Origin: Spirogloea muscicola
Taxonomy: Eukaryota > Streptophyta > Zygnematophyceae > Spirogloeales > Spirogloeaceae
Reading direction: 5' to 3'
Assembly (NCBI GenBank): GCA_009602725.1
Contig: WELB01000128.1
Span: 56,413 to 92,762 of the forward strand
Length of the DNA: 36,350 nucleotides
Under the pieces are notes generated by a model that saw only the letters and a list, made by a program, of their open reading frames with translations, had not been told where the DNA came from and made no database searches. This document shows positions 6,101-36,350 of this stretch, one piece after another; within the stretch, counting starts at the first letter, position 1; every line of letters starts with the position of its first letter. The translations under genes were made by a program, and so were the position numbers.

Positions 6101-8671
6101 TCAACACCCTGCACATGGCAGCAATTATCTGCATTACTATGGAAGGTCAGATCCAGCTGTTAGATCCACTCAAAGCCACTGACACACATTGATTGAATCC
6201 AGAAAGACCAATGCCAGGAGTGGACCTTGAAGTCCGAGCGAATTGCTGCTGATATTACTGAAAAGGTTGAGTAGAAGTAAGCTGCATTTGTCCCAAGTGC
6301 AATCAAGACATCCATGTTGGCAGTCTTCCGCTTCAATGCATGCCATGCCCCACTGTAAAACCTGCATATAAACCAAACGCACTTCAGAGTCATGTAATGC
6401 CTGTATATCATCACTGCAGTAGGGCCACATCTATTCTGCACATGAATGTGAATCGGCCTCTGGAGTTGGGCTAGGTGATCGCCTCATGCATCAACATGCC
6501 GGGGATCCATTCAGGGATGCTCCAATGAGAACCTTCTTCCAACTATGAATTGCACAGGTGTTGCCAGGGACCAGCGGAGAAGATCACCTATTGTGAAACT
6601 GATGCAAAAGCAACAGCCTCCTGTTAGTGTGCGACTTGCTGCAAGCCAATGACTCGCTGTGGGGCATGCACTTAGGAAAGCAAAACAGTGAGATCATTCC
6701 AAACTCACGCTAATCTGCAAAGTAGAATATGGGAAGCATGAAACCTCAAGTACAATTCATTACAGCTATATATTGACGGCGCTCTGTTGATACTATGAGC
6801 ATCTGCATCAATGACCTGCATATTGGGTGCTGGGAAGCTACTGACTGATTGATTAAATTTGTGTCGAGCCCTTGCTTGATGCCTGGTATTTCAGGGAGGA
6901 CCATAGATAGAAGGAAAACGGGCAAAGTGAAGATAGAGCTCAAGACAAACAGGCGCCAGTGTTGCTTGACCTCCTTCTCGCGGTGCTCTTGATCCAAGCC
7001 ACTCTGCCTGCACAAAGAGAATAGAAGTACATTCAAGCACACAGCTAATGCTCAAGCAACACTGAATTTGCATCCATACTTGTCACTGGAGGACTACGGA
7101 GCAGGCCAAGACAGTAAGGGACTTTAGCTCCTCCAACTTTGACCTCATGAAGAGAAGCAGACCTGCTATGCAATGTGGCCCTGTACGCGCCTCCTGGTCC
7201 AGCACCTTCTATGCAGTCTACCAGCGTTCGAGGCCCAGTGACATCAGGATCAAACATGACAGTCACTCTCTCCCCAGATGGATTCATGTCAACAGAGATG
7301 ACCCCAATCAGGCTCTGTAGAGCCGTCTCCACCAGATTGATAGCTTCCAAAGAGTGCACACCCTCCAGAGTGATGTTGACTTTATTCCTGTCGCCCATTG
7401 TAAGGAGCTCAGCTTCAAAACCAGAGTTCTCCACCACTTTGATAATGTCAGCTGGGCTCACCAACTTGCTGTTATATTCCACAGCAGCTTCATTGGTGGC
7501 AAGTGCCACAGTGGCTTTACTTACGCCTCGTACCCTCTGCAGATCAAGGCTACGTGGACAGCTGAGTGAATGTTGTGCCTGAGGGTAAATAGGACACACT
7601 GTTCACAACTAGTATTTCCTTCTATGACTCATCCACATATCAAGGTTCGAAAGCATAATTTTGATCTTTCATTGTACCAGTTTGAGCAGTCATCCAAACG
7701 GTAAGCAGGATCCGTATGTGCCTATCAATCCATTGCATACCTTTACAGCCTCTTCCACTGCACCACTACAAGTCGTGCAGGTCATGCCAGTGATCTGGAG
7801 CTTGCAAACGCTTAGGCCTTCATCCTCCTCCAGCAAGCTTGCCTCGAAACCTGCATCTTCAATAGCCTCTAGAATGTCTTCAACCTGCATGACTCCTATA
7901 GTTGGGTCAACAATCAGCGTGTTTGGAGTTTGCATCCCACATCAGTTGAACCAATATCATGTAGTCTTGCCTCGATGGGTGAACATGGTGCGAAGGGTGA
8001 GCAATGTGGTAAGGCAGTGGGTAGTAGCTCAGGACCTGGACAATGCTTGGATAGAAGGCAATCTTTGCTCTGTTGCTCATCACCGAAACAGTCCCCGATG
8101 CAACACCATCCATACGCTTCAAAGCCTTCTCAATGGCAGCTGAACAGGCTGTGCACTGCATGCCCGTGATGTGCACCATGACAGTCCTTGAAAGCTCTTC
8201 CCTGTTGGAGTTGCTCCTTCGGGCAGGTGATCTAGACAGTGCGAGCTGCAGTGACACGAATTCCTACAGCCAGAAATACAAGCGGCCAAGCTGAGCTCTC
8301 AGCTTAGGCAGTCCTGTGAGAATGCGCGACAAATGAACTGCACGTCCAAGAGCCTCCTCCTTTCATAGCATACATAAGGAGTTGACCTTCTGCTCAACTG
8401 AATATAAACAAATTGACGTGTAGCACGGCCCTGGCAGCTTCGACACCCTCTAGTATACTGCCAACGACACGGCGCAAGGGTGGAAGAACAATCATTCTTT
8501 GCACAATTTCCATAATCAACAGGCCTTATACTGATCGCAGGTCCACGCTGATCAAGTAACCCACACCACCAGCTGAAAGTACTACGCTACCCCAGCACGC
8601 ACCTTGCTCTCGGATGGTGTGCGATGCTCCGCCTGCACGAACTGCAACTGTGAGCTTCGAGTGCTCGCCAT
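3105..8671 (-). CDS. RAN1-like: Copper-transporting P1B-1 ATPase, RAN1/HMA7-like
   Basis: This pump moves Cu(I) across a membrane at the cost of ATP, typically into the secretory pathway or plastid in plants and algae. Fourteen exons in transcript order: 8671-8603, 8245-8036, 7884-7741, 7536-7087, 7003-6816, 6598-6533, 6361-6226, 6108-5839, 5634-5401, 5196-4942, 4835-4713, 4429-4169, 3994-3713 and 3524-3105. They sum to 1035 residues. Two metal-binding HMA domains carry CTAC (54-57) and CTTC (129-132); a third HMA-like domain lacks CxxC, as in Arabidopsis RAN1. Then come TGES (520-523), the ion-binding CPC (637-639), DKTGT with the phosphorylated Asp681, SEHP (718-721), MVTGDN and GDGIND. The C-terminus [16 protein letters not shown] matches the family. 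The start is the ATG at 8671, but the frame stays open upstream to 8881, so a longer N-terminus is possible. Confidence 0.95.
6533..6598 (-). other. Short copper ATPase exon for a transmembrane segment
   Basis: This 66-base exon is easy to miss. It encodes [17 protein letters not shown], the segment before FYSGAWHAL in copper ATPases. Its borders are an AG acceptor and a GT donor, and the phases (one base in, two out) join the neighbouring exons exactly. Confidence 0.85.
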
Positions 8672-9146: not shown

Positions 9147-9330
9147 GGGGCTTTGCCAGCCCCTCGTTTCCCAGCAGACGGCGCAAGCAGCCTTCCTGGG
9201 CTGCTGGCACCACATCGCCTCTCTGCACCACCCCACGCGCCACGGCCCTGTACGCAACGTGGAGGAAGGCTCCCGCTTCCGGGAACCCAGTCTCTCTGAC
9301 CTGAGGCTCCTTAGTCCCCGCCGAGTCCCC
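9147..9330 (+). mobile_element. Truncated 3' end of the retroelement family (relic)
   Basis: The segment contains the hairpin GGGGCT-TTGCC-AGCCCC near 9147-9165. At 9271-9320 it has a frame reading FREPSLSDLRLLS, matching the conserved C-terminus of the family (SLSDL..L.RGY). The final RGY and the stop are not preserved. It lies just upstream of the long copy. Confidence 0.6.
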
Positions 9331-9701
9331 CCGGGGCGTCCTCGGGCGCCCCGCGCGATGCCGCGCCAGGCCCCGGGCCCCCACCGGGCGCCTCGCCGGC
9401 GGCCGAGCTTCCCCAGCCACCCTCGCCTGGGCAGCAGTCCCCCGCGCCCGCGCCAGGGGCATTTGTACCGCCCGTCGCCTCACGCCCCACGACGGCCGCC
9501 TCAGGCGACATCGGGCGCCCCGCTCCATGCCGCGCCAGGCCCCGGCCCCCCCCCGACTGCAGCGCAGCCCCTTCTGCCCAGGTTGCAGCTGCACTCGTCA
9601 CCCGTCAATCACCTCCTGTCCCGCCTCCCTCAGCAGTACCGCTGTCCGTCGCACCGCAGCCGAGCACGCCCTTGCACCCTGCCACTCATGCCGCAGGGTG
9701 T

Positions 9702-12700
9702 ATGATATTCTCTAGCGTGCGGCTGCCGCCTCCTCGTCCGAAGCGGGCTTGCCCCAACAAGTCGCCACCCCGGGCCAGGAAGAGTGCACGCAGCGAGGGT
9801 GGCGTGGCCACTGCCGCCACTTCCCGGGGCGGAGACGGCCCGAGTACGAGCGAGGCGGCCCCTGCTCCTCCAACTGCCCCTCCTATGTCCACCATCCCGG
9901 CACCCACCATTCCGGCGACTACCGCTGCCGCTGCCGTTGTTGCTGCTGTTGCCGCTTCTGCTGCCACTACCGCCGACGTGGCTCCTTCAAGCCCAAGTGG
10001 TTCCAGTAACAGGCGCAGGAGGGGTCGTCGGCCCCAGCCCCCGATGGCTTCAGCCCTCCCGCCTCTCCTTCCTACTCCCGCCATCCCTGCAGCTGCAGCG
10101 GCTGCATCCACACGCTCTGCTGCTACCGCTGTCCCCCAAATCTGCCAGTACTGCCAGCACCCCTGGCCTAGCCTGCGGAGCGTTCGCATGCACGAGAGCC
10201 ACTGTTCCAGGAAGGCCAATCGCGCCAAGCAGCAGACCCAAGCCCTTGCTGAGGCCGCTAACCGACGACGGCAGCCCGGCACCCCAGCCCCGACACCCCC
10301 TCCCCCAGCTCCCTCGCCGGCTCAGTGGCGTTGGGCAAGGCTCCTGGACCTAGATGCGGTCATGCTGGAACCCAGTCTGCCCACCTTGCGGCACATTCCC
10401 CACTGGGCACGGCCGCACATCCAGCGAGCCTCGCGGCCCCTACTCACTCGGATGGCTCGGAACAGCTTCGACGAAGCTGCGTGGACTGTCTGGCACCTCC
10501 TCCCTCGCCTAGTCCTGGGACCCCTTCCAAGTGGTCCAAGCCGACGCGCGGTGATGCTAGCCAGGATTCAGCGTTTTGAGGGCGGTGCATGGGAGCAGCT
10601 CCTGGAGGAGCATCGCGCAGCTGTCCAGGTGTCCCAGGCGAATCGGCCCACCCCAGCCACCTCAGAGGCTTCAGCTGTCCGCCGAGCCATTCGTTTCGGC
10701 CGCGCAGGGGACCTTTCCCGAGCTGCCCAAGCTCTGGACCCAGCCACCCCAGCACCTCACGACGCAGAGACCCTTGCTGCTCTCCAGACCCTCCACCCCC
10801 CTGCCCCAAGCTCCCTACCCCCCTGGCTCGAGGAGTTTCAGCCCCCGACCATGGTGGACCTCAATCCAGAAGCTCTTCGGACAGCGCTGGTGCAGAGCCG
10901 GAAAGCAGCGGCCGGAGGGCCCTCGGGCATGCTCTTCGAACACCTTCGAGAGCTCTGGCTCGACGACGAGGCGGGTGACTTCAGTCTGCTGCACAAAGTG
11001 TGCCAAGCGGTTGCGCGCGGCCTCCTCCCACCCAAGGCCCGGGCGGCACTCACCAGCAGCACCCTGCTCGCTCTCTCCAAGCCCACCGGGGGCGTCCGAC
11101 CAATTGCGATGGGCGAGGTCCTTACCCGACTGGTTTCAAAAACCCTATTCCAGCAGAACAGAGAGGCGGCGCAGCTCCACTTCTCTCCACACCAGTTTGG
11201 CGCAGGGCTGTCTGCGGGCGCGGAGACAGTGGTTCATGGTCTACGTGTTGCCCTAGACTGCAATCCCGATTGGATGGCTCTATCTGTGGACGTGAAGAAT
11301 GCCTTTAACAGTGTTGACAGAGGTGTCATCGCCGAGGAGCTGCGCACGCATTTTCCCTCCCTCATCCCTTTCTTCCGGTGTTCCTACGGAGCACCCTCCC
11401 GACTGCTCTGGGGAGCGGGCACGTCACAGGTGGTCTTGCAATCCAGCACAGGCACCCGGCAGGGAGACCCTTTGGGCGGGTTCCTCTTTGCATTGGCACA
11501 CCTACGTGCGCTGCGTAATACGGCGAAGGCCCACCCTGCCGTGCTAATCCCAAGCTACGCCGACGACACCACCCTGGTGGGACCCCCAACTGAAGTCACC
11601 AGCGCTTACAGCACGTTGGAGCGCGAGCTTCACAGCCTCGGCCTCAGCATCCGGCCCGAGAAGTGTTCAGCCTGGTCTCCAGCCGGCATCCCTACCTCCA
11701 GCAAGCTGCCGGCCGGGTGCCAGACCCCACCACTCGGCATGGTGGTGCTTGGAGCCCCGTTGGGGGCTGCTGCGTATGTGGAGCAAGTTGTGGAGTCCAC
11801 CCTTGAGAACCATCTCCGGACCCTCCCGGCCCTCCCCTCCCTACAGGACGCGCAGCTTGCGGTGGCCATCCTCACCCGGTGTGTGGCCCAGCGTCCCACT
11901 TACCTGTTGCGGACTGTGCCCCCCACCACTGCACTAAACGCCATCTACTCTATCGTGGACTCCAGACTCCAACAGGCTCTTCATGGCCTGGTGGACCATC
12001 CCGACCTATCCGCCACGCCGGCGGCCATCCTACAGTGTACCCTACCCATCAGTAAAGGCGGCCTTGGGTGCCGTCCATTGGCTCGCCTGTCCCAAGCAGC
12101 TCACCTGGGTTGCTGGGCCCAAGTGGCCTCCACCATCTCCAGTCGCTTCATCCTGAGGGGCCAGGCTGTTTTAGCACCCGCCATAGCGGGTGTTGCAACA
12201 GGGAACCTGCCCTTCCAGCTTTCTCTAACCGCAGCACTACGTGACCTCTCGCGCTGCTTACCAACGCTTGCAGAGGGTCATGCAGATTTTGCGGCATGGG
12301 CACGCTGTTCTGACAGGAAAGCGCAGGGCCTTTACTCTCACGCTGCGGACGTGCAGGCCGCCTCTGACTTGCAGGGACTGCTCAAGGACGATGGACGTGG
12401 CCTCACCCGGCTCCTCTCCATCAGCTCCCCAGGCGCGTCGGAGTGGTTAAATGCTCTGCCGATATACGAGTCCCTTCGGCTCTCAGACAACCTGTTTCGT
12501 ACCGCGCTCCATCACCACCTCGGCCTCCCCCCCCCTTGCTTGGCTGGCATCCGCCAGTGCGAGTGTGGCCACATTGCCGATGACAAAGCTCGCCCTAGCC
12601 GCGCACATGCTGAGGTGTGCTGAAGGGGTGAGCGCATTGCCTCCCACGACTTACTCAGGGATACAATGTTTGGAATTTTGCGAGAGGCGGGGTATCATCC

Positions 12701-25222: not shown

Positions 25223-27881
25223 TCATCGCTTTGACCATATCCATCGGTGCATATAAGTGCAGCAGACTAGCCTGCCAATTTGAGCCAGGACCACTTCTGC
25301 TTCTTTTTCGTGATTCTGCAAGCAGAGTTGGGAATCCATGTGATCAACAAATACTTCAGTCAGCTGCAAACATAGGCATATGAAGCTGGTAGGATGTTGG
25401 AACACCAACACCAAGACACCTGGACTTGTGAAAGTGCATTCAACACATCGATCTGACCAATGCCCAACAGCTACGCAAACTTTTGAGAAATTGCTCTAGC
25501 AGCCTCACCCTGTCGATCTTGTCAATGAAGGCTGCAACAGCCACCTGGTCGTACTCCGTGCCCAGTTTGATGATACCAACATCATTGCAGACGCCAAGTA
25601 TGCTGCCAGAGACAAACGATAGGACCATCAATAGATTTGCCTGTATGCATGTATACCTGCATAAGTCACACAACTTGTGCAGCATCTTAACGCAGAATTA
25701 CTGGTGATTAGACAACTTTCGCACATTTCAAGAAGCAGAGAGGCACTGCACTCTTACGTGCCAGTCTTGTGATATATAGTGGCGCTTCGTGGCAGGCGTC
25801 GACGCAGTCGTCTGAGGCCGAATTGCTACGACAGTGGACACAAACAAGATCACAAATGGTACAGTGTGTATGACTGCACAAATCCTCTACAGGCGTCACT
25901 CTTTCATGAGACTTGCCTATGCAGTTCTTGGCATAAGGGATGGGTATACCTGCTGGGAGAGGAACAGAAAGCACACGGCCCTCAAGTGCGGCAGTAGTAA
26001 AGGCCCCTGCGCCATGGCTGCCAGCAGGCGCACAGTGTCCCGAGGGGAACCATAGTTGTCAACAGCTGCAGCACACTCACGGTCCTGCTTGTAGTCCGCT
26101 CCTCCATTTGCCTGCCAAGCTCGCAACTATGTCAGTCAACAAGCTCTGATGTGACCAATGGCGACATTGAGGGTGTGACTTGAAGCCATCCAGCTGTGCA
26201 TGCATGTGTGTGAACGTTTGCAAGAGAACGGCTTGAGAGGCAAGACGAATTTGGTACTGACCATAAATGCTACTTCAGCTTGGCACTCGAGAGCGTGCAG
26301 GCCCACAAGGGGAAGGCCTCTGTTGGCATTCTCTGTAGCCACTGCAACGGCACGACGCTGACCTGAGCTCAAGGTTTGCCACCTTCATCCAGCCAAATGC
26401 AGGAGCTGAAATCGACATCAGGGTTCACAGCAGTGCTCAAGCTGGTGCCATTGACCATGAACCAGACTGCATAGCAGTATCAGAGCAAGCTATTGGATCT
26501 GCACAATGCAATCTGCCAGTATCGTGGAGATTGCACTGCTAACCCTCTGCTGCAGTGTGCTCATTGCGCAGGATGAGGCTGACAAGGCATTGCACCTTGC
26601 AGCAATCTGCTGCGACGACTGGCCAAACATTGATGGTGCCCTCCCAAGTGCCATGAGATACGCCTGCACATGTATGAGGAGCACAGGCACGCTTTGCCAA
26701 TGACTGCGTACATGTATAAAGCTTCAGTCAGATCAGGCACTCAAGTTGTGTAAGCTCAACATCAGCGTTCAGGCAAACCATACACAAGCTTCCAATTGGA
26801 CCAGGCATGTATGTCACCACAATCAATTGTTAGGCTGTGAGGTAAGACACCGAGGGCACCCCTGAGCCCTCAACCCTATATCCTAGAACTTCAGGACTTA
26901 GGGCACTCTGCTTCACCTGTCGTTGGGAAAGCTCAACTGCAGTCTGCTGCAACCCTAATTGATGCACAAGACCACCCACTCTGCTCAATGTGACAGCACG
27001 CAGGACCTGCCACAGCACAAGCAGTGCACTCATCGCCCCAGAAGCATCTGATGCAATGTTGGCACAAGATACGACTGTTGCCAGTCGTGAAGGAAAAGCA
27101 CTTCAATGATGCTCTGCTCGGTGACCATTCAACAAACTGTGTCAAGCTAACCCCGAAGCACTTACCAGGTCAGCGGCAGTGTTGTCAGAGATGACAGTCA
27201 TCAGGCGCAGGCACTCCCGTAAAGGAACACACGTGCCACTGGAGCAGCACCGTATTGCTTGTAACAGCATGAGTGTCTTCCGGTTAGTGAGTCGAATCAA
27301 AATATAATCTCTCAAACAGTATCCAATCACCACCTTTCACTCCACTGGATATTGTTACTCGCGCTCAGTACAGTGACGACCATGGGAGCATAGCGCAGCG
27401 ACGTGCCTAGGCAGGGCACGTAGGACGCCGCTGCCGATGCACTTGTCGGCTTCGTCCATGCAGACGAGATCCTCGAGGCTCAGCGTCCCCTCCTGCACTA
27501 CATGACACCCGTGACAATGGTGGGTGACGGCGCAACTCGAGGGTCTGAAAGAATGATTGTTGTTGACCACGGAATCGCTTCTGCAGCCCTTGGTCACAAG
27601 CCCAAAGATAAGCCACTGATGGTACTGAAGAAATCTGGCAGCCCGACTGTTGTTGTCGGTTGCTGGAGGCAAGAGCTCTTCAGGCATGCAATGCTCTGGT
27701 TCGGCAACGGATGCAGAGATGGCAGAGGCTGTGATGGCGGCAGCGGCCTTGCCTGCGCCTGCTGCGCAGCGGCCACGAGCAGATGGAGCTTCACGACGGA
27801 GGCGAGCGGGAACTTAGAGCTGGCGGCCACGCCGGCCTCCTCGCCAGTGCCCAAGTGCAGCACAGCGACGCCCACACGCAT
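25223..27881 (-). CDS. Class A beta-lactamase-fold serine hydrolase, intron-containing
   Basis: The fold contains class A beta-lactamases and DD-peptidase-like serine hydrolases; the substrate here is unknown. Eight exons in transcript order: 27881-27753, 27492-27407, 27238-27166, 27006-26917, 26111-25950, 25825-25758, 25602-25509 and 25315-25223. They give 264 residues, the size of a mature class A enzyme. The nucleophile motif is S28-VV-K31 in FPLASVVKLHLLVAAA. SDN is at 89-91 in RLMTVISDNTAADL. KTG is at 200-202 in IYHKTGTILGVCNDVGII. Their spacing matches class A enzymes. A Glu166-xx-Leu-Asn equivalent is not apparent. Introns 1 and 2 need GC donors (CAG|GCAAGG and CTAG|GCACGT). No signal peptide is seen from the ATG at 27881; an in-frame TGA upstream means any longer N-terminus needs another exon. 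Confidence 0.9.
27408..27752 (-). other. Two GC-AG introns flanking exon 2 of the lactamase-like gene
   Basis: The intron 27752-27493 begins with GCAAGG after CAG, close to the consensus for GC donors. The next intron, 27406-27239 (just outside this span), begins with GCACGT after CTAG. Both joins keep the frame and reproduce the family sequence around EGTLSLEDLV and GSGVLRALPS. Confidence 0.65.
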
Positions 27882-28481
27882 GTGCCTGCCGAAGGCATCC
27901 GCAGCGCGGGCAGGCCCTCAGTGCCTGCGGACTCAAGGGGGCGACTGACGGCGACGAAGTCCGGCCAGAGCAGCTTACTCCTGCGCAGCGGCAAGCCGCG
28001 ACAACTTGCGCTGGAGCCGCCGGGTCCGCATGGGCACAGGCGACGGCGGTGCCCGCTGCTGCGTCGGCAGCAGCTCGGCCGGCGGCTTGCACCACGGAGG
28101 CCACACCCCGCAGCCCGGGTCCTCGGCAGCGGCAGCGGCTGCGGCATTGGCGGCAGCGGTGTCAGCACCGCCAGCTGCACCACGCCGCAGCACGGCAGTC
28201 GCAGCCGCCGCCCACGCCTGAGCAAGGCGCAGCGGCAGCCCCGCGCCCTGCCCTCCGTCCGCGCCGCCGCTGCCNTTGTTTGTTGGGCGCCCACAAAAGC
28301 TCCCACTTCTCTGTGGTGGGCGCCCGACTCCCTCCCCGCCCTAATCCTAACCTAAGCCTAGATGCCTGCCCTGAACCCTAGTCCGCAGCCCCCCCAGGCC
28401 CAAGGCCATGGCTGTCTCACCCTGCAGCAGCAGCCCGAGTCGCGCTCCCTCGCAGCCGCCGCCGCTCTCCGGCTTCTCCAG
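27882..28481. other. GC-rich spacer between the lactamase-like gene and ATX
   Basis: This stretch contains the promoter side of the lactamase-like gene and the 3' flank of the ATX gene, both on the minus strand. It has a single undetermined base at 28275 and runs of GCN triplets. Open frames on both strands are Ala/Arg/Cys-rich and look compositional. A leader exon of the lactamase-like gene could lie here but could not be defined. Confidence 0.45.
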
Positions 28482-31400
28482 TCAGTTCATGAAGCGGCGG
28501 CACGTCGGCGCGCCGCACAGGCACGGCACCTTCTTGTCCTCCTGTGCAAACCGGTAGTCGTATCTGCGCCGCCATGCCAGCCCGTCGCATCGTCGTCAGC
28601 ACCTTCCGGCAGCGGCCTTGGTCAGACTGTCGAGGCGAGGATGAAGGAGGAGAGGGGTATGTGTGTGTATTGTGAGGCAGGGCGGAGGGAGGGTGCCCGG
28701 CACTCTCACGTGAGCTCGTCGCCGACCGCCACATCCTTGCGTGTAATGAGGACAATGCTGCTCACACCGTCCACGTCCAGGATCTTCGCGTGGCAATTCG
28801 GGGAGCACTGCCAGCAGACGTGGGAACGATGCGGCATTGGACCCAAATCTACATATCTTCCTCTTCCAAAGTGAGTAGTCTGTCAGGTAACGGTACTCAT
28901 GAAGCTTAGACAATCAAGCAGCATGATTGCCAGAAGCAGTTTGTACCGAGTGGTTGATGAGCCGCGCAATATTTCCCTGCATTGTCGCGTCAATCACCTT
29001 CTCCTCGTCCATTTTGAACAGCTGAAGAAGCAAAGAGATTAATCAGTACCCTGGACATCCGCATTGTTTACATCAGCTGATGGCTCAAAGCTGAATCCTG
29101 ACCTTTGATCTAAGCTATGTGTTTGATTGAATTGAATTCAAGACAGTGCCTCAACGCTCCAGACAATCTTCTGCTGCTTGCCGAGAACTAATCATCAAGT
29201 ACAAAGAGGCTGCCATGATGGCTTACATAGCAGTCCTTGCCAACCGCAGCATAGCGTCGCTCTCGCAGGTCCGCAATGCTCCTCCTCACCGCCTCCCCGC
29301 GATAATCAATCACCTGCACAGCCCCGCATTGCACTCGTTAGTTGCTCTACTAGGCCACACTCAAGGGTGGAAGAGGCTGGCAGGACCAATGTCATTTCCA
29401 CATCGTCACCACGATGCTTGCTACCACAGGAGGACGCTTGCCACTGCGTTATTGAGACAGGGTGGCTCCTTACCCATTCGCCCTCTCTGAGAGCGCGCCG
29501 TGCCATAAGGCCCCACCCGTGGATGGCCGACTTCCCAATGCAGGCCCTGGTCATTGCTGTCCTCTGAAGAGAAGAAGCCCACAATCATTGTGGCAATTGA
29601 TTAGATAGTCATCTCATTCCCTCCTTCCAGTTCCAAGTTTCCAAGTTTCATCACTCCAAGATGAACAGAGGGTTTGTTGTTCACCTGTACAAAGGCAACC
29701 CGCTCCTGCAGCGAGTATCGTTGACCGGAGTCTGGCTGCGGAAACACCTGCAAGCACCAATAGATAAGAGCAGCAATTGTTATCATGCAGCAGGTATATG
29801 CTACATGTCCACATTGTGTAGAAGAGACAAATTACGATATGTAAGATATACTATGAAGGTATTGGGGGTTATTGCAGCTCAAATATCCTCACCCGCATCC
29901 TGTGCAGGCTCTCAAGCGAATGGTGCACAAAGCCCCCCACCCAGTGTGGCACTGCTTGTCTCTTTGGCCCCTGAGTACCCTTGTCAACATCGACCAGCTA
30001 TTGGGTCAGTCAACACGCCGAGATCACTGCCCCACCACAGCCCTACCACAGCCTGGCAAAGGGCTATTGAACAACAATGGCTGGGCTCACAACGGACTCG
30101 AGAGCTTCATGTCACTTCGACATGGAATATCCTTATAGTCCTGGAAGGGAAGACAGACAGACAGCGAGTGACACAAAGACTTCAAGCACAGAAAGTCGAA
30201 GCTTGCCCAAGCAGTAAGTACAACGCAGATGCTACGACTTACCTGCAGCTTGACCTCCCTTGTGAAAGGAGCGTACGGCTGGCATCGGGCAGCTAGTGCA
30301 AGGTCGTCATCCAGGATCATCGCCTGGACAACAGCGGCATTGTCCAGGATCTCCTCAAGCGGGTGCTCCATCGATGTCACCTTTTCAAGAGTAATTCGCC
30401 GGGGGGCTCGTCGCGCCCGCAGCTTCTGGTACGCCGCCTCGGCTGCTGGCGCGATAACAGCAAGCTCCTGATTGGGAGCTCTGCTTATTGGGGACAGCGC
30501 AAAAAGCACGCAGCTGATTTTCAGCATGTGCAACACATGACTTGAGTTCTGCTGCTTCGTGCATACATATCAATCCCTATATCATATCGTTGCATGCTAT
30601 TCTGGTGTCACTAGGTCCTAATCGAAGAATGTCCTGAACCATGACTTGTAACAAGATATGGGAGCTCGTACACCTAGCTATCAGCAAGCTTTGGCCAACA
30701 ATGGGCAGGCTTTGAGGAGCATGTACCTGTGCTTTCCGCAATACGAGCGGAGTTGCAGCCCTGTTTCCCCGTTCTTGGATGCCAGGGAGCTAGTGGACAT
30801 CTGCAACACAAAAGTCGAAGTTGCTGCGACACTGTCAATATACTCCGCTGGTCTTCACAAATTAGCTGGCCTACCACAAGCTACTGCACACCCGAGATGA
30901 AGACTGGCTCATTGTTTAAGCTTTTGTCCTTCAATCCAGTGATAAAGGCAAGCCTCTCACCTCCAAGGTAAATCCGGCCTTGAATGCACACATTGGATGG
31001 TAGGAGGCCATGCAGCCCGGTTCGTCGCACTGGATACATGCCCCATGGGGCTGCCGGCAAACCATGCACCTCTGCCAAAGAACGGGCGAAACGATACATA
31101 TACTTTAACCAGATGCCATCTGAATGGCTTACCCTACCATGATGCCTGCCTGCACGTATGCAAAGACCTGATTTGATGAAGGATATGGAAGACAAGCCGT
31201 GACCTCTGAAAGAGAAGGTGCTAGTGTCGGGCTCATACGTCTTTGGGCTTAGTAAATTGCAAGCAGCACTCAGGACCCAGAGGGACAGCAGACCTTGGGG
31301 CTGTATTTCCAGGTGTAGAGCTTACCAGCTTGAAGCGCTCTGCGTTGACATTGCGCAGCCCGGCTATAGGCTCCATGCGGGCACCGTCTGGGATTACAAC

Positions 31401-34400
31401 GCCGGGCACCCACCATGCGCACGTGACGTGGGCCCACACCCCCTTCACTGTGCTCGGCTTTAGGGCCCCTCCTGCAGCACATTCTAGCAGCAGAGCCAGT
31501 CAGGACAGCGCTGGTGTGAAGGATTGCTGGATAGTGAGCACTCCCCTACTCGAGCAAGTGCTCATGAGAGAAGCTTGAGCTATCTGACCTTTGATGGGGC
31601 AAAGGCAGCACTGCAGCTCGTCACTGAGTTCCTCGCAGGCACGGCACACCCAGGACCCCACCCTGCCAGCAGCTCTCACACCATAGCACATCTCGTGCAC
31701 CGCCACCTGGCACCTGCACAGCTCGTCTCGTGCACAAGACGCACAGAATTAGTACTACCTTATGACATGCATCTCCTGTGCCATCTCCTACAAGAAAGCA
31801 AAGGTGAATTGCATTCTTTCGGTCTCTTGGCACATCCAGGCAACAAGCGTAAATCACCAACGACCAAAGGGCTGAACATATGTAGCATGTACCTGTCACA
31901 CATCATGAACTGATTCTCGTGGTGGTCGTCCTCGCGATGGCAGACCGCGCACCGCTCTGACGTCCACGTCAGCTCCAAGGGCTCAAATCCGACTGCAAGC
32001 AGTCAAATGTCCCGCATGAATGCTGCACCTCTTGTCTTGTGAGTGCACGCAGTAACACATCCTTGTGCTTCTCATGTACATCACAAGTATCTAGGATCAT
32101 GTGTTACTACACCCATTAACGAACTCTTGACCCATAATGGTTTCAGCTCCAGGCTTCAGGCTTCAGGATGCAGGCATCAGCTTACTATCACTGGAAGCAG
32201 AGTGGTCCCTGGAGCTTGACTTCGATGCAGGCGGCTTCTCCTCGAAGTAGGCTAAGCGGTGGGTCCCTGAGCTCTGCGCTGCTGTGAGCTGCGCCAAAGA
32301 CCAACATGCTGCTCCTCAGGTATTGCATACATCACTGTGGATGTGCAAGGGCCTTAAGATACAAGGCCCTTAAGATACAATCTACTGCATTAGCAGATAT
32401 GATGGCACTGCAGATTTTGTTTTACTTCCCTATTACATCCATGCAATTTGGGCACTCCAGGTCCGGACCAAATCATGTTACAGAAAAGCTAAGAGATCAG
32501 CAGAAGAAGGTGCAGTTAGATGGTAGCAGACGAACCCATACGACAAGGTGTTGCTGGCTGCTGACGACTATGACGCTCTCCTTCCACTTCTTTTTCCGAG
32601 ATCCTGCGTGGGCCTCAAATTCAGACAGGCTGACTTCCCGTGCCCCCTTGCACTCCCTGCAGTGGCACCTGACTCTGCAGCACTTGGCACCATAGGCTCG
32701 TCAACAATTCGGAAAAGAACAACCCACTATATATCTCCTCTGTGTAAATTCGTACACTATCATACTATGACACATTTCCAAGTAATGATTGATGTGTGTG
32801 GAGTTTGACAGGTACAAGGTAATTGACAAAAACTCTTCGTCTGAAATCAAGACTTCAAGCACGCTGCAGACATTGCCTATCATCCATGAAACAGCTTGAC
32901 AATGACTGAATCAAGTCTTATTTCTGCTGAGACGTCTGGTCAGCTCTAAAGTACATTCTAGCTCATACAGTAGCTCTAAGGCTGCCTTCACAAGCTCTTT
33001 TGGCTGGCACTCTGACCTGTGCAGGGAGGGCACGTATTCTCCAAACAAGCGCTCACATTTGACCTTTATTGTGGCCAACTTGTTGTGAGCAATGTCGCCG
33101 TTCCTGAAGAGGATGGCACCATGTCTCAACAGTAGAAACTCAAAGGGGGGAGTTTTCAAAGAGCTTGATATGAGGTGAACACCAGTCTACACCACGGAGC
33201 AAGTAGATTTACAGTGTTAAGATGATACCTGGCACTAGGGGCCTTCTTTGAGGCAGAGGAAGCCTTGGCTGCTCTCTGCAGCTGGCATTCTGGGCAGAAG
33301 TAAGCTGCACCGTTCTTCAAGTCCTGCATCACTTCGAACGAGGGGCCCTGTGAGTACAGCTCTAAGTCATCACAAGGCCTCACTGAGGCCTTGCAAATCT
33401 CAAGCTACACCATCCCGAGCGTGTTTGCAACAGCACAGCTACTTGTGCTGACTCCTAGCAAGCCCGATCAAGCCAAGTAGATGAGGGTCCAAAAACGCGA
33501 ATGATACACTCAGCTACCTGTAGCCGATGGCTGTTGAGTTTCTCGCAGGACGCGTGCACCCAGATGCTGCAGCCGTCACATGCCACCTGCCGAATTACGT
33601 GTGCAGGCTTGTCAGCTAGGACTGAATTGCATACAGTCAGGAGGAATAGAATTTAATACGCTGCTCCGATCAATATCAATGCTCTGACCAGATGCTATAC
33701 TGAGCATGTAGCCTGAGGCTCGGAGTTCGCTATACATCGTGTGGGGCTTTGTGCCCTTACCCAATCGCCCTTCTCGTTTGGCAGCCACACCTTCTTGCAG
33801 ACGCCGCAGTACTGCTTCAACTTGTAGAGCTGTAGCAGCAACAGCGTTGAGAGCCAAGTCAGCTTTGACGAGGCAGTCAGTCTACGAGATGCAGCTGCAT
33901 TGGCAGCATATCACTTGGGTCTGACGTTCCACCAGACAGGCTTGCCACCCTGCGGATCTGGAACAGAACAACTAGCGCAACACCAGCATAGCAGAGGTCG
34001 TTGAGGCTAGGTGCACTGCCACTCACTTTTGCACACGACTTGCAGACTAGGCTGGTATGGACGCTCGCCGCCTTTTTCTTGGCCTGCGCGATGATAGTCG
34101 GCGGGAGAACCTGACCACAGCCCCCGCATAGGATGTGTGCTTCCTGCGTGCATTATTCAAGGCAGCAAAACGATTAAGATAGAACAAGCTCCAGAAGTCC
34201 AATGAGAGCAACACCAACTCCAACTCAAACTTTAAATTCTGTCATGATAAGTTGCTTGCCTCGTCCATGGATGCAGTCCAGCTATCAAGACCATCATTAT
34301 GTTTCTGGTGCACCTGCTTGACGGCTGGCACATCTCCTTCCGGTGCAGGAGCCCCCTCGCCGACAAGCTCAGCAGAGATGGCCGTGGCTCGAGCTGGTGG

Positions 34401-36350
34401 CAGGGATGCCGCCTCATCGCCGGCGCACTCGCCAGCATCCTCCAGCAGCGCCTCCTCCACAGCCAGCCGGTAGTCGCCTGGTCGTTGCTTGCTCATCAGC
34501 GCCTGGCCTTGGAAGCTGCAATTGCAAGCAAGCACACTCATCAGCCGCATGCAAACCAAAGGCTTCACACTGCAGCTAGACATAACAAACAAGCAACAGT
34601 CACGGGGTGACGATGGCTAAGCTGTCAGCTCTAGCCGGGGACCTTGACTGGACTATGACATGAGGCAGCGGGCGTACCAGGCCAAGTAGTCCAAGAATGG
34701 AACGATCATGCCCTGCTTCACCCACGCATAGTCCTGCCGCAACAGCAGAGCGATAAACCCCAGTTAGTACTCTAATCGCAACCTGAGATGCACGGTCACA
34801 ACTGGGACTGACAGATGAGATGCTGCTGTCCTCACCCGCTTGTGCTTCTTGACGGCAGGCGGCCCGAAGAAGACGACACAAAGAGCGCCGGGGCTGGCCA
34901 GGGCCCGCACGCCATCCGGGGCATCGTTGACGGGGTCGACAACGCGCGCCGGCCAAAAGGGGTCGTGCTTCTGGCCCGACCGCGCCCACACCAGATCGCC
35001 GACCTCAAACTCCTCCAGCCGGTGACCCGCTGCGGTCGCTGCCGACGGTGGCGAAAGCACAGTGCGCAGCTGATGCTGTCTCTCGCGGCCCGCCGCCGCT
35101 GCTCCACCCGACAGCGGCCGGATGTCAGCCAGCCCAACGAGGTTGGCCGTTGCTGCCGGAAGTATCGCCACCTCCGCCTCAGCCAGCTCCGCGCGGGCGC
35201 TCCGCAGCGCCTCAGTCCGGGGCGACTCTGGCGGCGTGGCGGGCTTTGACGTCGCCGCATCCGCCTCCAGCATCTCTGTATCCGTGTTCAGAGCAGACGG
35301 CAGGAGGGCCGCCATTGCCAGCCCGGGCATGGCTGGCACTGGGACCGCCGTGGCACGCGGAGCACTGGCGGTGCTCGGGCGCTCGCTGTTGAAGGCACTG
35401 AGTGCCAGGATGTACTTGTACTCGGGCGTGTCAAACGGCGTCAGCGGCCCATCCCACAGCGGCGGCAGATAGCGTGCCGGAGCCGGGGCGGGAGGCCATG
35501 CCGCCGGCAGCGGCGTCCGCAGCAGCTCCAGGGCGCGCTTCTTGGGCGGCCGGCAGACCATGGCGGAGGACGCCGGCCTGGCGCACGGCCGCTGTGCATC
35601 GGCTTCAGGGGCCGGTGGCCTTGGGCGCTTCTCCGCCGGCGGCCACGGCTCCTCGCCCGGCTCCACCCGCAGCTTCTTGACGCGGTGCCGGAAGGAGCGC
35701 CGTGTCACAGCGACGGCCGCCGCCGCGTCCATGGCTGCCGCCATCGTCACGCACCGCAGGTCCAGCTCCTGGGCGCTGTCGCCGCACTCGTGCAGCGGCT
35801 GGCGAGCGCGCCAGCCCTGCGCCGCAGGCCGAGGCTCACGTCAGGAGCCATGGCCTCAGTCGATCTCCTGACTAACCACATGGGCGACTAGAGGTTGTCG
35901 AGCTGACCTCTTCTGGCGATGGCGGCGTGGCTGGGGCCTCGCCACCGCCGTCGCCGTCGCCGCGGCCGACGCCGGCGCCGGCGCCGGCGTCGGCGACGAG
36001 CTCGGCGGCCCCGTCCTCCTCAGATGGAGCCCGCTTGGCGGGCGTGACATGGCGCTGGACCGCGCCTGTGCGTGTGACGGCCCCAGCTCGCTGCGATGGC
36101 TGCGGCGGCGGCGGCGCCGCTAGCGCCTCCGACGACGCCGCGGCAGCGTCCGGCGACGGCACCGCGGATTGCGGGGGCTGCGACAGCTGCGGCGCAGGCT
36201 TTGGCGTAGCCCTCTCCGAGCTCCTGAGAAGGCGCCGGCTGCTGTCCTCCGAGCTGGCGGGGGCGGGCCACGGACGCTTGCGAGGCGGCGGCAGCGGTGC
36301 CGGCGAGCACGGCGGCAAGCGCGGCGAAGACTGCCGCGGCGGCGGCGGCG
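28482..36350 (-). CDS. ATX-like: Trithorax-type histone H3 lysine methyltransferase, PWWP-PHD-ePHD-SET (ATX3/4/5-like; 5' partial)
   Basis: This nuclear enzyme is expected to methylate histone H3, probably Lys4. Firm exons include 36350-35908, 35816-34836, 34733-34678, 34515-34260, 34143-34027, 33829-33761, 33586-33518, 33347-33229, 33103-33017, 31471-31326, 30800-30727 and the last, about 28575-28482. A Pro/Ala-rich leader precedes the PWWP domain ([23 protein letters not shown]). Next are [13 protein letters not shown], the PHD zinc ligands ([40 protein letters not shown]), the block [17 protein letters not shown] and the extended PHD ([37 protein letters not shown]). SET follows with [47 protein letters not shown] and DELTYDYRF, then post-[16 protein letters not shown] and TGA. 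No FYRN/FYRC domain was seen. The start lies beyond the right edge. Confidence 0.93.
32345..32381. repeat. Short tandem duplication in an ATX intron
   Basis: CCTTAAGATACAA occurs twice with AGG-CC between, giving a unit of about 17 bases. It sits in non-coding sequence and has no obvious function. Confidence 0.7.
34144..34259 (-). other. GC-AG intron in the ATX gene
   Basis: The exon 34515-34260 ends SMDE and is followed by GCAAGC; no in-frame GT donor is near. The next exon starts after CACGCAG with [10 protein letters not shown]. The join keeps phase 0 and leads directly into the conserved PHD cysteines. Confidence 0.65.

What the first reader, a model, noticed from the sequence alone, without database searches (positions are those of the whole stretch)
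25223..27881. Intron-containing class A beta-lactamase-fold gene in an algal nuclear genome
The S-x-x-K, SDN and KTG motifs are all present with class A spacing (S28, S89, K200) in a 264-residue product split over eight exons. Seven introns argue against bacterial contamination and for a gene long resident in the genome, possibly an ancient transfer. The Glu that deacylates penicillins (Glu166) has no clear counterpart, so the enzyme may be a peptidase or esterase or may act on another substrate. Motifs are seen; transfer and function are inference.
Basis: partly seen in the sequence, partly recalled or inferred. Interest (0 to 1): 0.75.

Follow-up and report, generated by a model that had tools for sequence, protein, structure and literature searches.

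The report
Bacterial cell-wall-type enzyme in an alga
[quoted passage not shown] it keeps the acylating machinery but has a glutamine where penicillinases have the glutamate they need, so it is probably a peptidase or similar hydrolase and not a resistance enzyme.

Summary
The gene (minus strand, 25223 to at least 28274) has at least 11 exons, not 8: a 5' exon (27979-28274) and two internal exons (26596-26663, 26262-26382; a 63-residue in-frame cassette) were missed. Two further copies in the genome share all ten intron borders; the eight reported exons have pN/pS near 0.1; 11 bacterial proteins align end to end through the cassette (profile 303.6 bits with it, 246.9 without; 0 of 500 shuffles reach 303.6). 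The product is a PF13354 class A-fold serine enzyme with S70, K73, S130, N132 and KTG. Position 166 is Gln in all three copies, Asn in those 11, Glu in 3 of 88 others. Among solved structures the family profile fits TLL2115 (PBP-A, a DD-peptidase) and LRA-5 best, neither with a natural Glu166. So it is not a class A beta-lactamase by definition; most likely a PBP-A-like acyl-enzyme hydrolase of bacterial origin, present before the segment was triplicated. Triplicated loci, 92 GRAS matches and LHCII suggest a zygnematophyte (perhaps Spirogloea; inference). Donor, substrate, location and expression are unknown.

The parts
27979..28274 (-).
   Evidence: in-phase GT-AG junction conserved in three copies; ATG present in the C15 copy; in-frame length differences between copies
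27753..27885 (-). Exon x1, carries SxxK; GC donor
   Evidence: Pfam
27789..27800 (-). SVVK: nucleophile Ser (Ambler 70) and Lys 73
   Evidence: S and K in 102 of 102 aligned proteins
27407..27492 (-). Exon x2 with DKCIGSG; GC donor
27439..27441 (-). Cys of CIGSG: in 3 of 3 algal copies, 11 of 11 XL relatives, 1 of 88 others
27166..27238 (-). Exon x3 with SDN
27181..27189 (-). SDN (Ambler 130-132)
26917..27006 (-). Exon x4, ends in the Omega loop (..ELSQRQ)
26923..26925 (-). Gln codon at the Glu166 position
   Evidence: alignments
26596..26663 (-). Exon x5 (missed): first part of the 63-residue Omega-loop cassette
26262..26382 (-). Exon x6 (missed): second part of the cassette
26286..26288 (-). 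Glu of ALECQ (E200 of the model numbering): in 3 of 3 algal copies and 11 of 11 XL relatives; the column is a gap in the 88 others; candidate replacement base
25950..26111 (-). Exon x7 (..VDNYGSPRDTVRLL..)
25758..25825 (-). Exon x8 with HKTG
25760..25768 (-). KTG (Ambler 234-236)
25509..25602 (-). Exon x9
25223..25315 (-). Exon x10, last helix and stop codon

Best explanation
A nuclear gene of a streptophyte green alga, of bacterial origin, encodes a class A-fold serine acyl-transferase/hydrolase that works like cyanobacterial PBP-A. Ser70, activated by Lys73 with Ser130 and Lys234 nearby, attacks a D-Ala-D-Ala-like peptide (or another amide or ester) and forms an acyl-enzyme. The Omega loop carries Gln, not Glu, at 166 plus a 63-residue insertion that probably forms a lid over the site, so deacylation does not run by the beta-lactamase route; beta-lactams should bind and be released slowly. 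Shown: gene structure, selection, motifs, Gln at 166, bacterial kinship. Inferred: chemistry, substrate, lid role. Most likely use: hydrolysis of muropeptide-like or D-amino-acid peptides of bacteria around or in the cell.
For: PF13354 at 2e-49. All acylation residues present in 3 of 3 copies; position 166 is Gln (3 of 3), Asn in 11 of 11 XL relatives, Glu in 3 of 88 others. The best solved relatives of the 12-sequence profile are TLL2115 (6.6e-42) and LRA-5 (8eo7 3.4e-41, 8eo5 1.6e-40). PBP-A is a DD-carboxypeptidase and DD-endopeptidase that lacks the catalytic Omega-loop glutamate (abstract and introduction of PMC11189452); wild-type LRA-5, without Glu166, has biologically insignificant beta-lactamase activity (abstract and passages of PMC12777564). 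Purifying selection in the alga: pN 0.013, pS 0.12-0.16 over eight exons. The alga and the XL proteins lie on one side of a 100/100 branch.
Against: With the single algal sequence (eight-exon model) the best solved match is 6v4w, whose aligned residue is Glu, and TLL2115 ranks fifth. The genome shows no D-Ala-D-Ala ligase match (PF07478) and one weak, stop-interrupted transpeptidase match (PF00905), so an internal peptidoglycan substrate is not supported, although such exon-by-exon searches can miss split genes. The solved relatives lack the cassette. The conserved Glu in the cassette could supply a deacylating base after all. That TLL2115 is PBP-A is recalled, not printed by a call.
Confidence: 0.6

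Rival explanations
1. A true beta-lactamase in which a Glu of the cassette (E200) replaces Glu166 as the deacylating base.
For: E200 is present in 14 of 14 XL and algal proteins and lies in the Omega-loop insertion.
Against: No structure places it near Ser70; the class A cut-off of NCBIfam is not reached; 85 of the 88 other proteins lack Glu at 166 as well as the cassette, so the wider family is not defined by a deacylating Glu.
Confidence: 0.12
2. An esterase or amidase of eukaryotic metabolism that kept the fold but lost the peptidase and penicillin-binding roles, in the manner of LACTB.
For: No clear peptidoglycan synthesis genes found in the host; the hydrophobic N-terminal stretch of the bacterial relatives is replaced by a 115-residue region without a strong hydrophobic stretch.
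Against: The active-site motifs are fully those of penicillin-recognising enzymes.
Confidence: 0.2
3. A remnant of the plastid ancestor (endosymbiotic gene transfer from the cyanobacterium) and not a lateral transfer.
For: PBP-A is cyanobacterial and is the best solved match of the profile.
Against: The proteins found with a cassette like the alga's lie in the phylum of G004 (11 loci), where PsaA/PsaB is in 0 of 149 genomes, and once in the phylum of G001, reached from a Caldilineaceae MAG (L110). RpoB of G156 is nearer to 18 other solved chains than to 8syi and 8gzg, taken from memory as cyanobacterial. Photosynthetic cyanobacteria were not sampled as genomes, so this is weak.
Confidence: 0.12
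4. Bacterial contamination or a decayed pseudogene.
For: None beyond bacterial kinship.
Against: Ten introns with conserved borders in three copies, collinear neighbours with SET and PWWP domains, no frameshift or stop in the exons and pN/pS near 0.1.
Confidence: 0.02

Closest known systems
XL group: 11 unnamed bacterial proteins (L096, L097, L099, L100, L102-L108)
   Same: End-to-end alignment, 34-37% identity, same Omega cassette, CIGSG-type Cys, Arg after 166, cassette Glu
   Different: Asn, not Gln, at 166; hydrophobic N-terminal stretch like a signal peptide in the six examined; no introns
L110, from the phylum of G001 (1 of 3 loci fetched out of 400 genomes)
   Same: Omega loop of similar length, DKCPGSG Cys and cassette Glu
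   Different: Only 26% identity and 91.7 bits, Phe at 166; part of it is masked
PBP-A of Thermosynechococcus (TLL2115; PDB 2j9o, 2j7v; identity of the two recalled)
   Same: Class A fold, acylation motifs, no catalytic Omega-loop Glu (introduction of PMC11189452; Leu158 listed among active-site residues), best solved match of the profile
   Different: No 63-residue cassette; bacterial; characterised DD-peptidase
LRA-5 (PDB 8eo5)
   Same: Class A fold without Glu166 (Val166)
   Different: Short Omega loop; soil metagenome protein
Class A beta-lactamases
   Same: Fold and S70, K73, S130, N132, KTG
   Different: Glu166 present; no cassette of this length in those aligned here (L011, L014, L095)
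LACTB (PF00144)
   Same: A eukaryotic enzyme derived from bacterial penicillin-recognising proteins (PMC2266909, listing and passages)
   Different: Different family: PF00144 matches only residues 17-72 of the algal protein at 28.3 bits

Membership tests
PF13354 (Beta-lactamase2) | Whole-domain profile match above the gathering score (22 bits) | tested here: met
   168.3 bits (eight-exon model plus part of x0), 159.2 bits (with cassette)
PF13354 (Beta-lactamase2) | SxxK, SDN, KTG | tested here: met
   all three algal copies
Class A beta-lactamase | Glu166 in the Omega loop | tested here: not met
   Gln in 3 of 3 copies
Class A beta-lactamase | NCBIfam NF033103 equivalog cut-off of 200 bits | tested here: not met
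   124.2 bits, eight-exon model
Class A beta-lactamase | Rapid beta-lactam hydrolysis | not testable with these tools
PBP-A | Class A fold with acylation motifs and no Glu at 166 | tested here: met
PBP-A | Omega loop without a long insertion | tested here: not met
   63-residue cassette; the profile's matches to TLL2115 break there
PBP-A | DD-carboxypeptidase/endopeptidase activity | not testable with these tools
XL group (defined here) | Cassette of about 60 residues in the Omega loop, collinear | tested here: met
   303.6 against 246.9 bits; 0 of 500 shuffles of x5, of x6 or of both reach 303.6
XL group (defined here) | CIGSG-type Cys, Arg after position 166, cassette Glu | tested here: met
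XL group (defined here) | Asn at position 166 | tested here: not met
   Gln in 3 of 3 copies; Phe in the further candidate L110, so this may not define the group
LACTB / PF00144 | Full PF00144 domain | tested here: not met
   28.3 bits over residues 17-72 only

The most novel reading that the evidence does not exclude
A sister lineage of land plants has domesticated a bacterial enzyme of an undescribed class A-fold group in which Glu166 is lost and a new Omega-loop lid, with its own conserved Glu and a conserved Cys in the CIGSG loop, creates a different deacylation chemistry, used against or on bacterial wall peptides by an alga that makes no wall peptide itself.
Probability: 0.15. Interest if true: 0.8.

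Novelty: new variant of a known kind. Interest (0 to 1): 0.55.

Why it matters
If true, it adds a bacterial wall-type enzyme to the genes that algae near the origin of land plants took from bacteria, kept under selection and through a genome triplication. It also marks a group of penicillin-recognising proteins with a large Omega-loop insertion and no Glu166, useful for the open question of how beta-lactamases and DD-peptidases are related: the group shows what the fold does when the deacylating Glu is absent in nature.

Tried and rejected
Exon choice: other GT donors for the intron after x2 gave poorer fits to bacterial relatives by eye; the GC donor TAG|GCACGT, conserved in three copies, was kept. 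A longer x5 was rejected because the C85 copy has an in-frame TAG. A first homology test of x5 against the shorter 'long Omega' bacterial proteins was not significant (24 of 200 shuffles scored as high); the test against the XL group was.

Donor. Phylum of G001 (400 genomes, evenly drawn; G001 is a Caldilineaceae MAG): 3 genomes match at E 1e-20, best 90.5 bits. Phylum of G007 (396 genomes; an Acidobacteria MAG): 1 genome, 76.8 bits. I fetched those four loci. In local tblastn these four reach 88-124 bits, the 11 XL loci 162-202. Photosynthetic cyanobacteria (apart from plasmids), Bacillota and Actinomycetota were not searched for the cassette; the genome-contig scan used patterns that I judged the XL proteins not to fit, and kept 80 of 534 confirmed loci. 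Plasmids: 4 records with the algal protein, 14 with L103 (24-35% identity, not inspected for the cassette). Phages: 2 partial weak records. Viral contigs: one distant locus with Glu166 (L014), none with the XL alignment. The 102-row tree is the quick one; the careful search did not finish.

Not in print: the listings of 10 paper searches showed no title or abstract start about a class A-fold gene in a zygnematophyte; one paper names 'beta-lactamase' among genes moved into plants (PMC9667741, one passage) and its text has no mention of Spirogloea or Mesotaenium.

Full report
What is there. The window is part of a 153.1 Mb genome in 471 contigs (C128:56413-92762). A PF13354 scan of that genome gives three places: window 27723-27872 (minus strand), one on C85 and one on C15. 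The C85 and C15 segments align with the window at 87-93% over most of about 16.5-36.3 kb, so the three genes are copies of one duplicated segment.

Gene model. Comparing the three copies (with provisional borders for x5 and x6): exons x1-x10 differ by 1.4-7.9% with no gap columns, introns by 3.3-21.7% with gap columns in 24 of 30 comparisons. For the eight exons pN is 0.013 and pS 0.12-0.16 in each of three pairs; for x5+x6 pN is 0.035-0.042 and pS 0.13, a weaker constraint. For x6 only the frame used is open in all three copies; x5 is short, is open in other frames too, and its antisense frame 0 gives the same silent/replacement counts, so x5 rests on homology (and below). All ten introns keep GT/GC-AG borders in 3 of 3 copies; those after x1 and x2 have GC donors. 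The upstream exon x0 ends ..RKLSRLAAAQ|E and joins HMRVGVAV in phase; in the window it runs into a gap (n at 28275), while C15 has an ATG, giving 444 residues; its length differs between copies in steps of whole codons where it can be compared.

The missed cassette. x5 and x6 add 63 residues in frame. A test against a first set of long-loop bacterial proteins was not significant (24 of 200 shuffles). A search of the 149 held genomes of the phylum of G004 (146 match at E 1e-3) then found proteins that match the algal protein on both sides of a central insertion. I examined 14 loci of that phylum: 11, from 11 genomes, carry the insertion; L095, L098 and L101 do not. The 11 align collinearly through x5 and x6 (tblastn 162-202 bits; alignment). 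Against their profile the full model scores 303.6 bits and the eight-exon model 246.9; with x5, x6 or both shuffled, 0 of 500 each reach 303.6, and the cassette alone scores 32.0 bits (E 3e-12 for a search of one sequence). The exons are therefore part of the protein.

Active site. In an alignment of 3 algal, 11 XL and 88 other proteins, Ser70, Lys73, Ser130, Asp131, Lys234 and Gly236 are invariant; Asn132 is lost once and Thr235 is Ser or Pro in 14 of the 88. Position 166 is Gln (3 of 3), Asn (11 of 11), and in the 88 others Cys 28, Met 19, Ile 14, Leu 12, Val 8, Thr 3, Glu 3, Pro 1. PDB alignments place the same Gln on a Glu of 6v4w and on residue 166 of the engineered LRA-5 variant 8eo7; the gapped alignment to wild-type 8eo5 in that call shifts the residue. 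The profile of alga plus XL places its Asn column on residue 166 of 8eo7. A Cys in CIGSG and a Glu in the cassette are present in 14 of 14 algal and XL proteins; the Cys occurs in 1 of 88 others, and the Glu column is a gap in all 88.

Nearest solved proteins. With the eight-exon algal sequence alone the order is 6v4w (1.2e-19), 8eo7, 8eo5, 4ewf, then TLL2115 (9.8e-17); 6v4w has Glu at the aligned place, which tells against a simple tie to Glu166-less enzymes. With the 12-sequence profile TLL2115 leads (6.6e-42), then LRA-5.

Kinship. The algal and XL proteins lie on one side of a branch in the quick 102-row tree (SH-aLRT 100) and in a careful 24-row tree (100/100; L110 not included; roots are for drawing only). 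Whether the alga lies inside or beside the sampled XL group is open (XL alone as a clade is not rejected, p-AU 0.371). The algal branch is long (1.0 and 1.4 changes per site in the two trees). The phylum of G004 is unnamed here: it was reached from L088, a MAG titled Candidatus Melainabacteria, but PsaA/PsaB is in 0 of 149 of its genomes, and the RpoB stretch of G156 scores 1271 and 1231 bits with its two best chains and 1104 and 1090 with 8syi and 8gzg (that these are cyanobacterial chains is recalled). My guess from memory, Vulcanimicrobiota, is untested. With L110 in a second phylum the donor stays open.

Host. GRAS (PF03514) gives 92 matches in the genome and none in 14 control genomes, which hold no plant or alga; LHC and GRAS matches recur, by eye, in sets of three contigs. 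One LHCII piece has as best PDB match a 620-residue LHCI-2 chain (9vfj, 416 bits; source not known to me), then 7xqp, 8htu and 8c29 (329-340 bits), many chains near 320, and 6kac at 317.5 (that 7xqp, 8htu and 8c29 are land-plant and 6kac Chlamydomonas is recalled), a small difference. That GRAS is absent from chlorophytes is recalled. Spirogloea muscicola has a reported genome triplication (passages of PMC7994812). I infer a zygnematophyte, perhaps this species; no call names it.

How it may work. Acylation residues are complete, the beta-lactamase deacylation base is not. PBP-A is a DD-carboxypeptidase and DD-endopeptidase (PMC11189452, abstract and introduction read). Wild-type LRA-5, which lacks Glu166, has biologically insignificant beta-lactamase activity (PMC12777564, abstract and passages read). 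By analogy the algal enzyme should form acyl-enzymes with D-Ala-D-Ala-like peptides and bind penicillins without fast hydrolysis. The genome shows no PF07478 match and one weak PF00905 match with stops, so an internal peptidoglycan is not supported; but the search is exon by exon, and a paper on plastid peptidoglycan (PMC10784329, passages) says that even most angiosperms keep a DDL, so the missing match may be a miss of the search. Bacterial relatives begin with a hydrophobic stretch (maximum mean hydropathy 1.5-2.4 in six examined), the C15 copy with an Ala- and Gly-rich region (1.17), so its location is unknown.

Verdict. It is a new variant of a known kind: a class A-fold serine enzyme without Glu166 and with an Omega-loop cassette, of bacterial origin, in a streptophyte alga and kept under selection.

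Noticed in passing
window 28485-35840, minus strand: Directly upstream on the same strand lie a SET domain (28485-29042 region) and, further up, a PWWP domain (34767-35840), perhaps one trithorax/ATX-like gene; the SET match was made with exons joined by hand.
   Followed up: partly
window 9315-12620, plus strand: A 1102-residue open frame with a reverse transcriptase domain (PF00078, 1.8e-15): a LINE-like element.
   Followed up: no
window 7048-7602, minus strand: Heavy-metal-associated (HMA) domain.
   Followed up: no
window 28275: A single n at the 5' end of the gene; the C85 copy also has an n beside its likely start codon, so the GC-rich start region seems to assemble badly.
   Followed up: partly
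window about 26550-26595, minus strand: About 46 bases downstream of the x5 donor are almost as conserved as the exon; in C85 they run into a TAG. Alternative splicing or a splicing signal is possible.
   Followed up: no
L128 and L131: In two bacterial genomes the XL gene lies beside a gene for a SIS-domain (GmhA-like, by eye) protein; meaning unknown.
   Followed up: no
L012, L010: Distant relatives on Deinococcus and Rhodothermus plasmids sit near a dipeptide epimerase and a MurR/RpiR regulator, and next to a peptidoglycan recognition protein: wall-recycling surroundings.
   Followed up: no
G000 contigs C153, C94, C69: PF00144 (class C-type) exons also occur in the genome, again in three matching places.
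   Followed up: no
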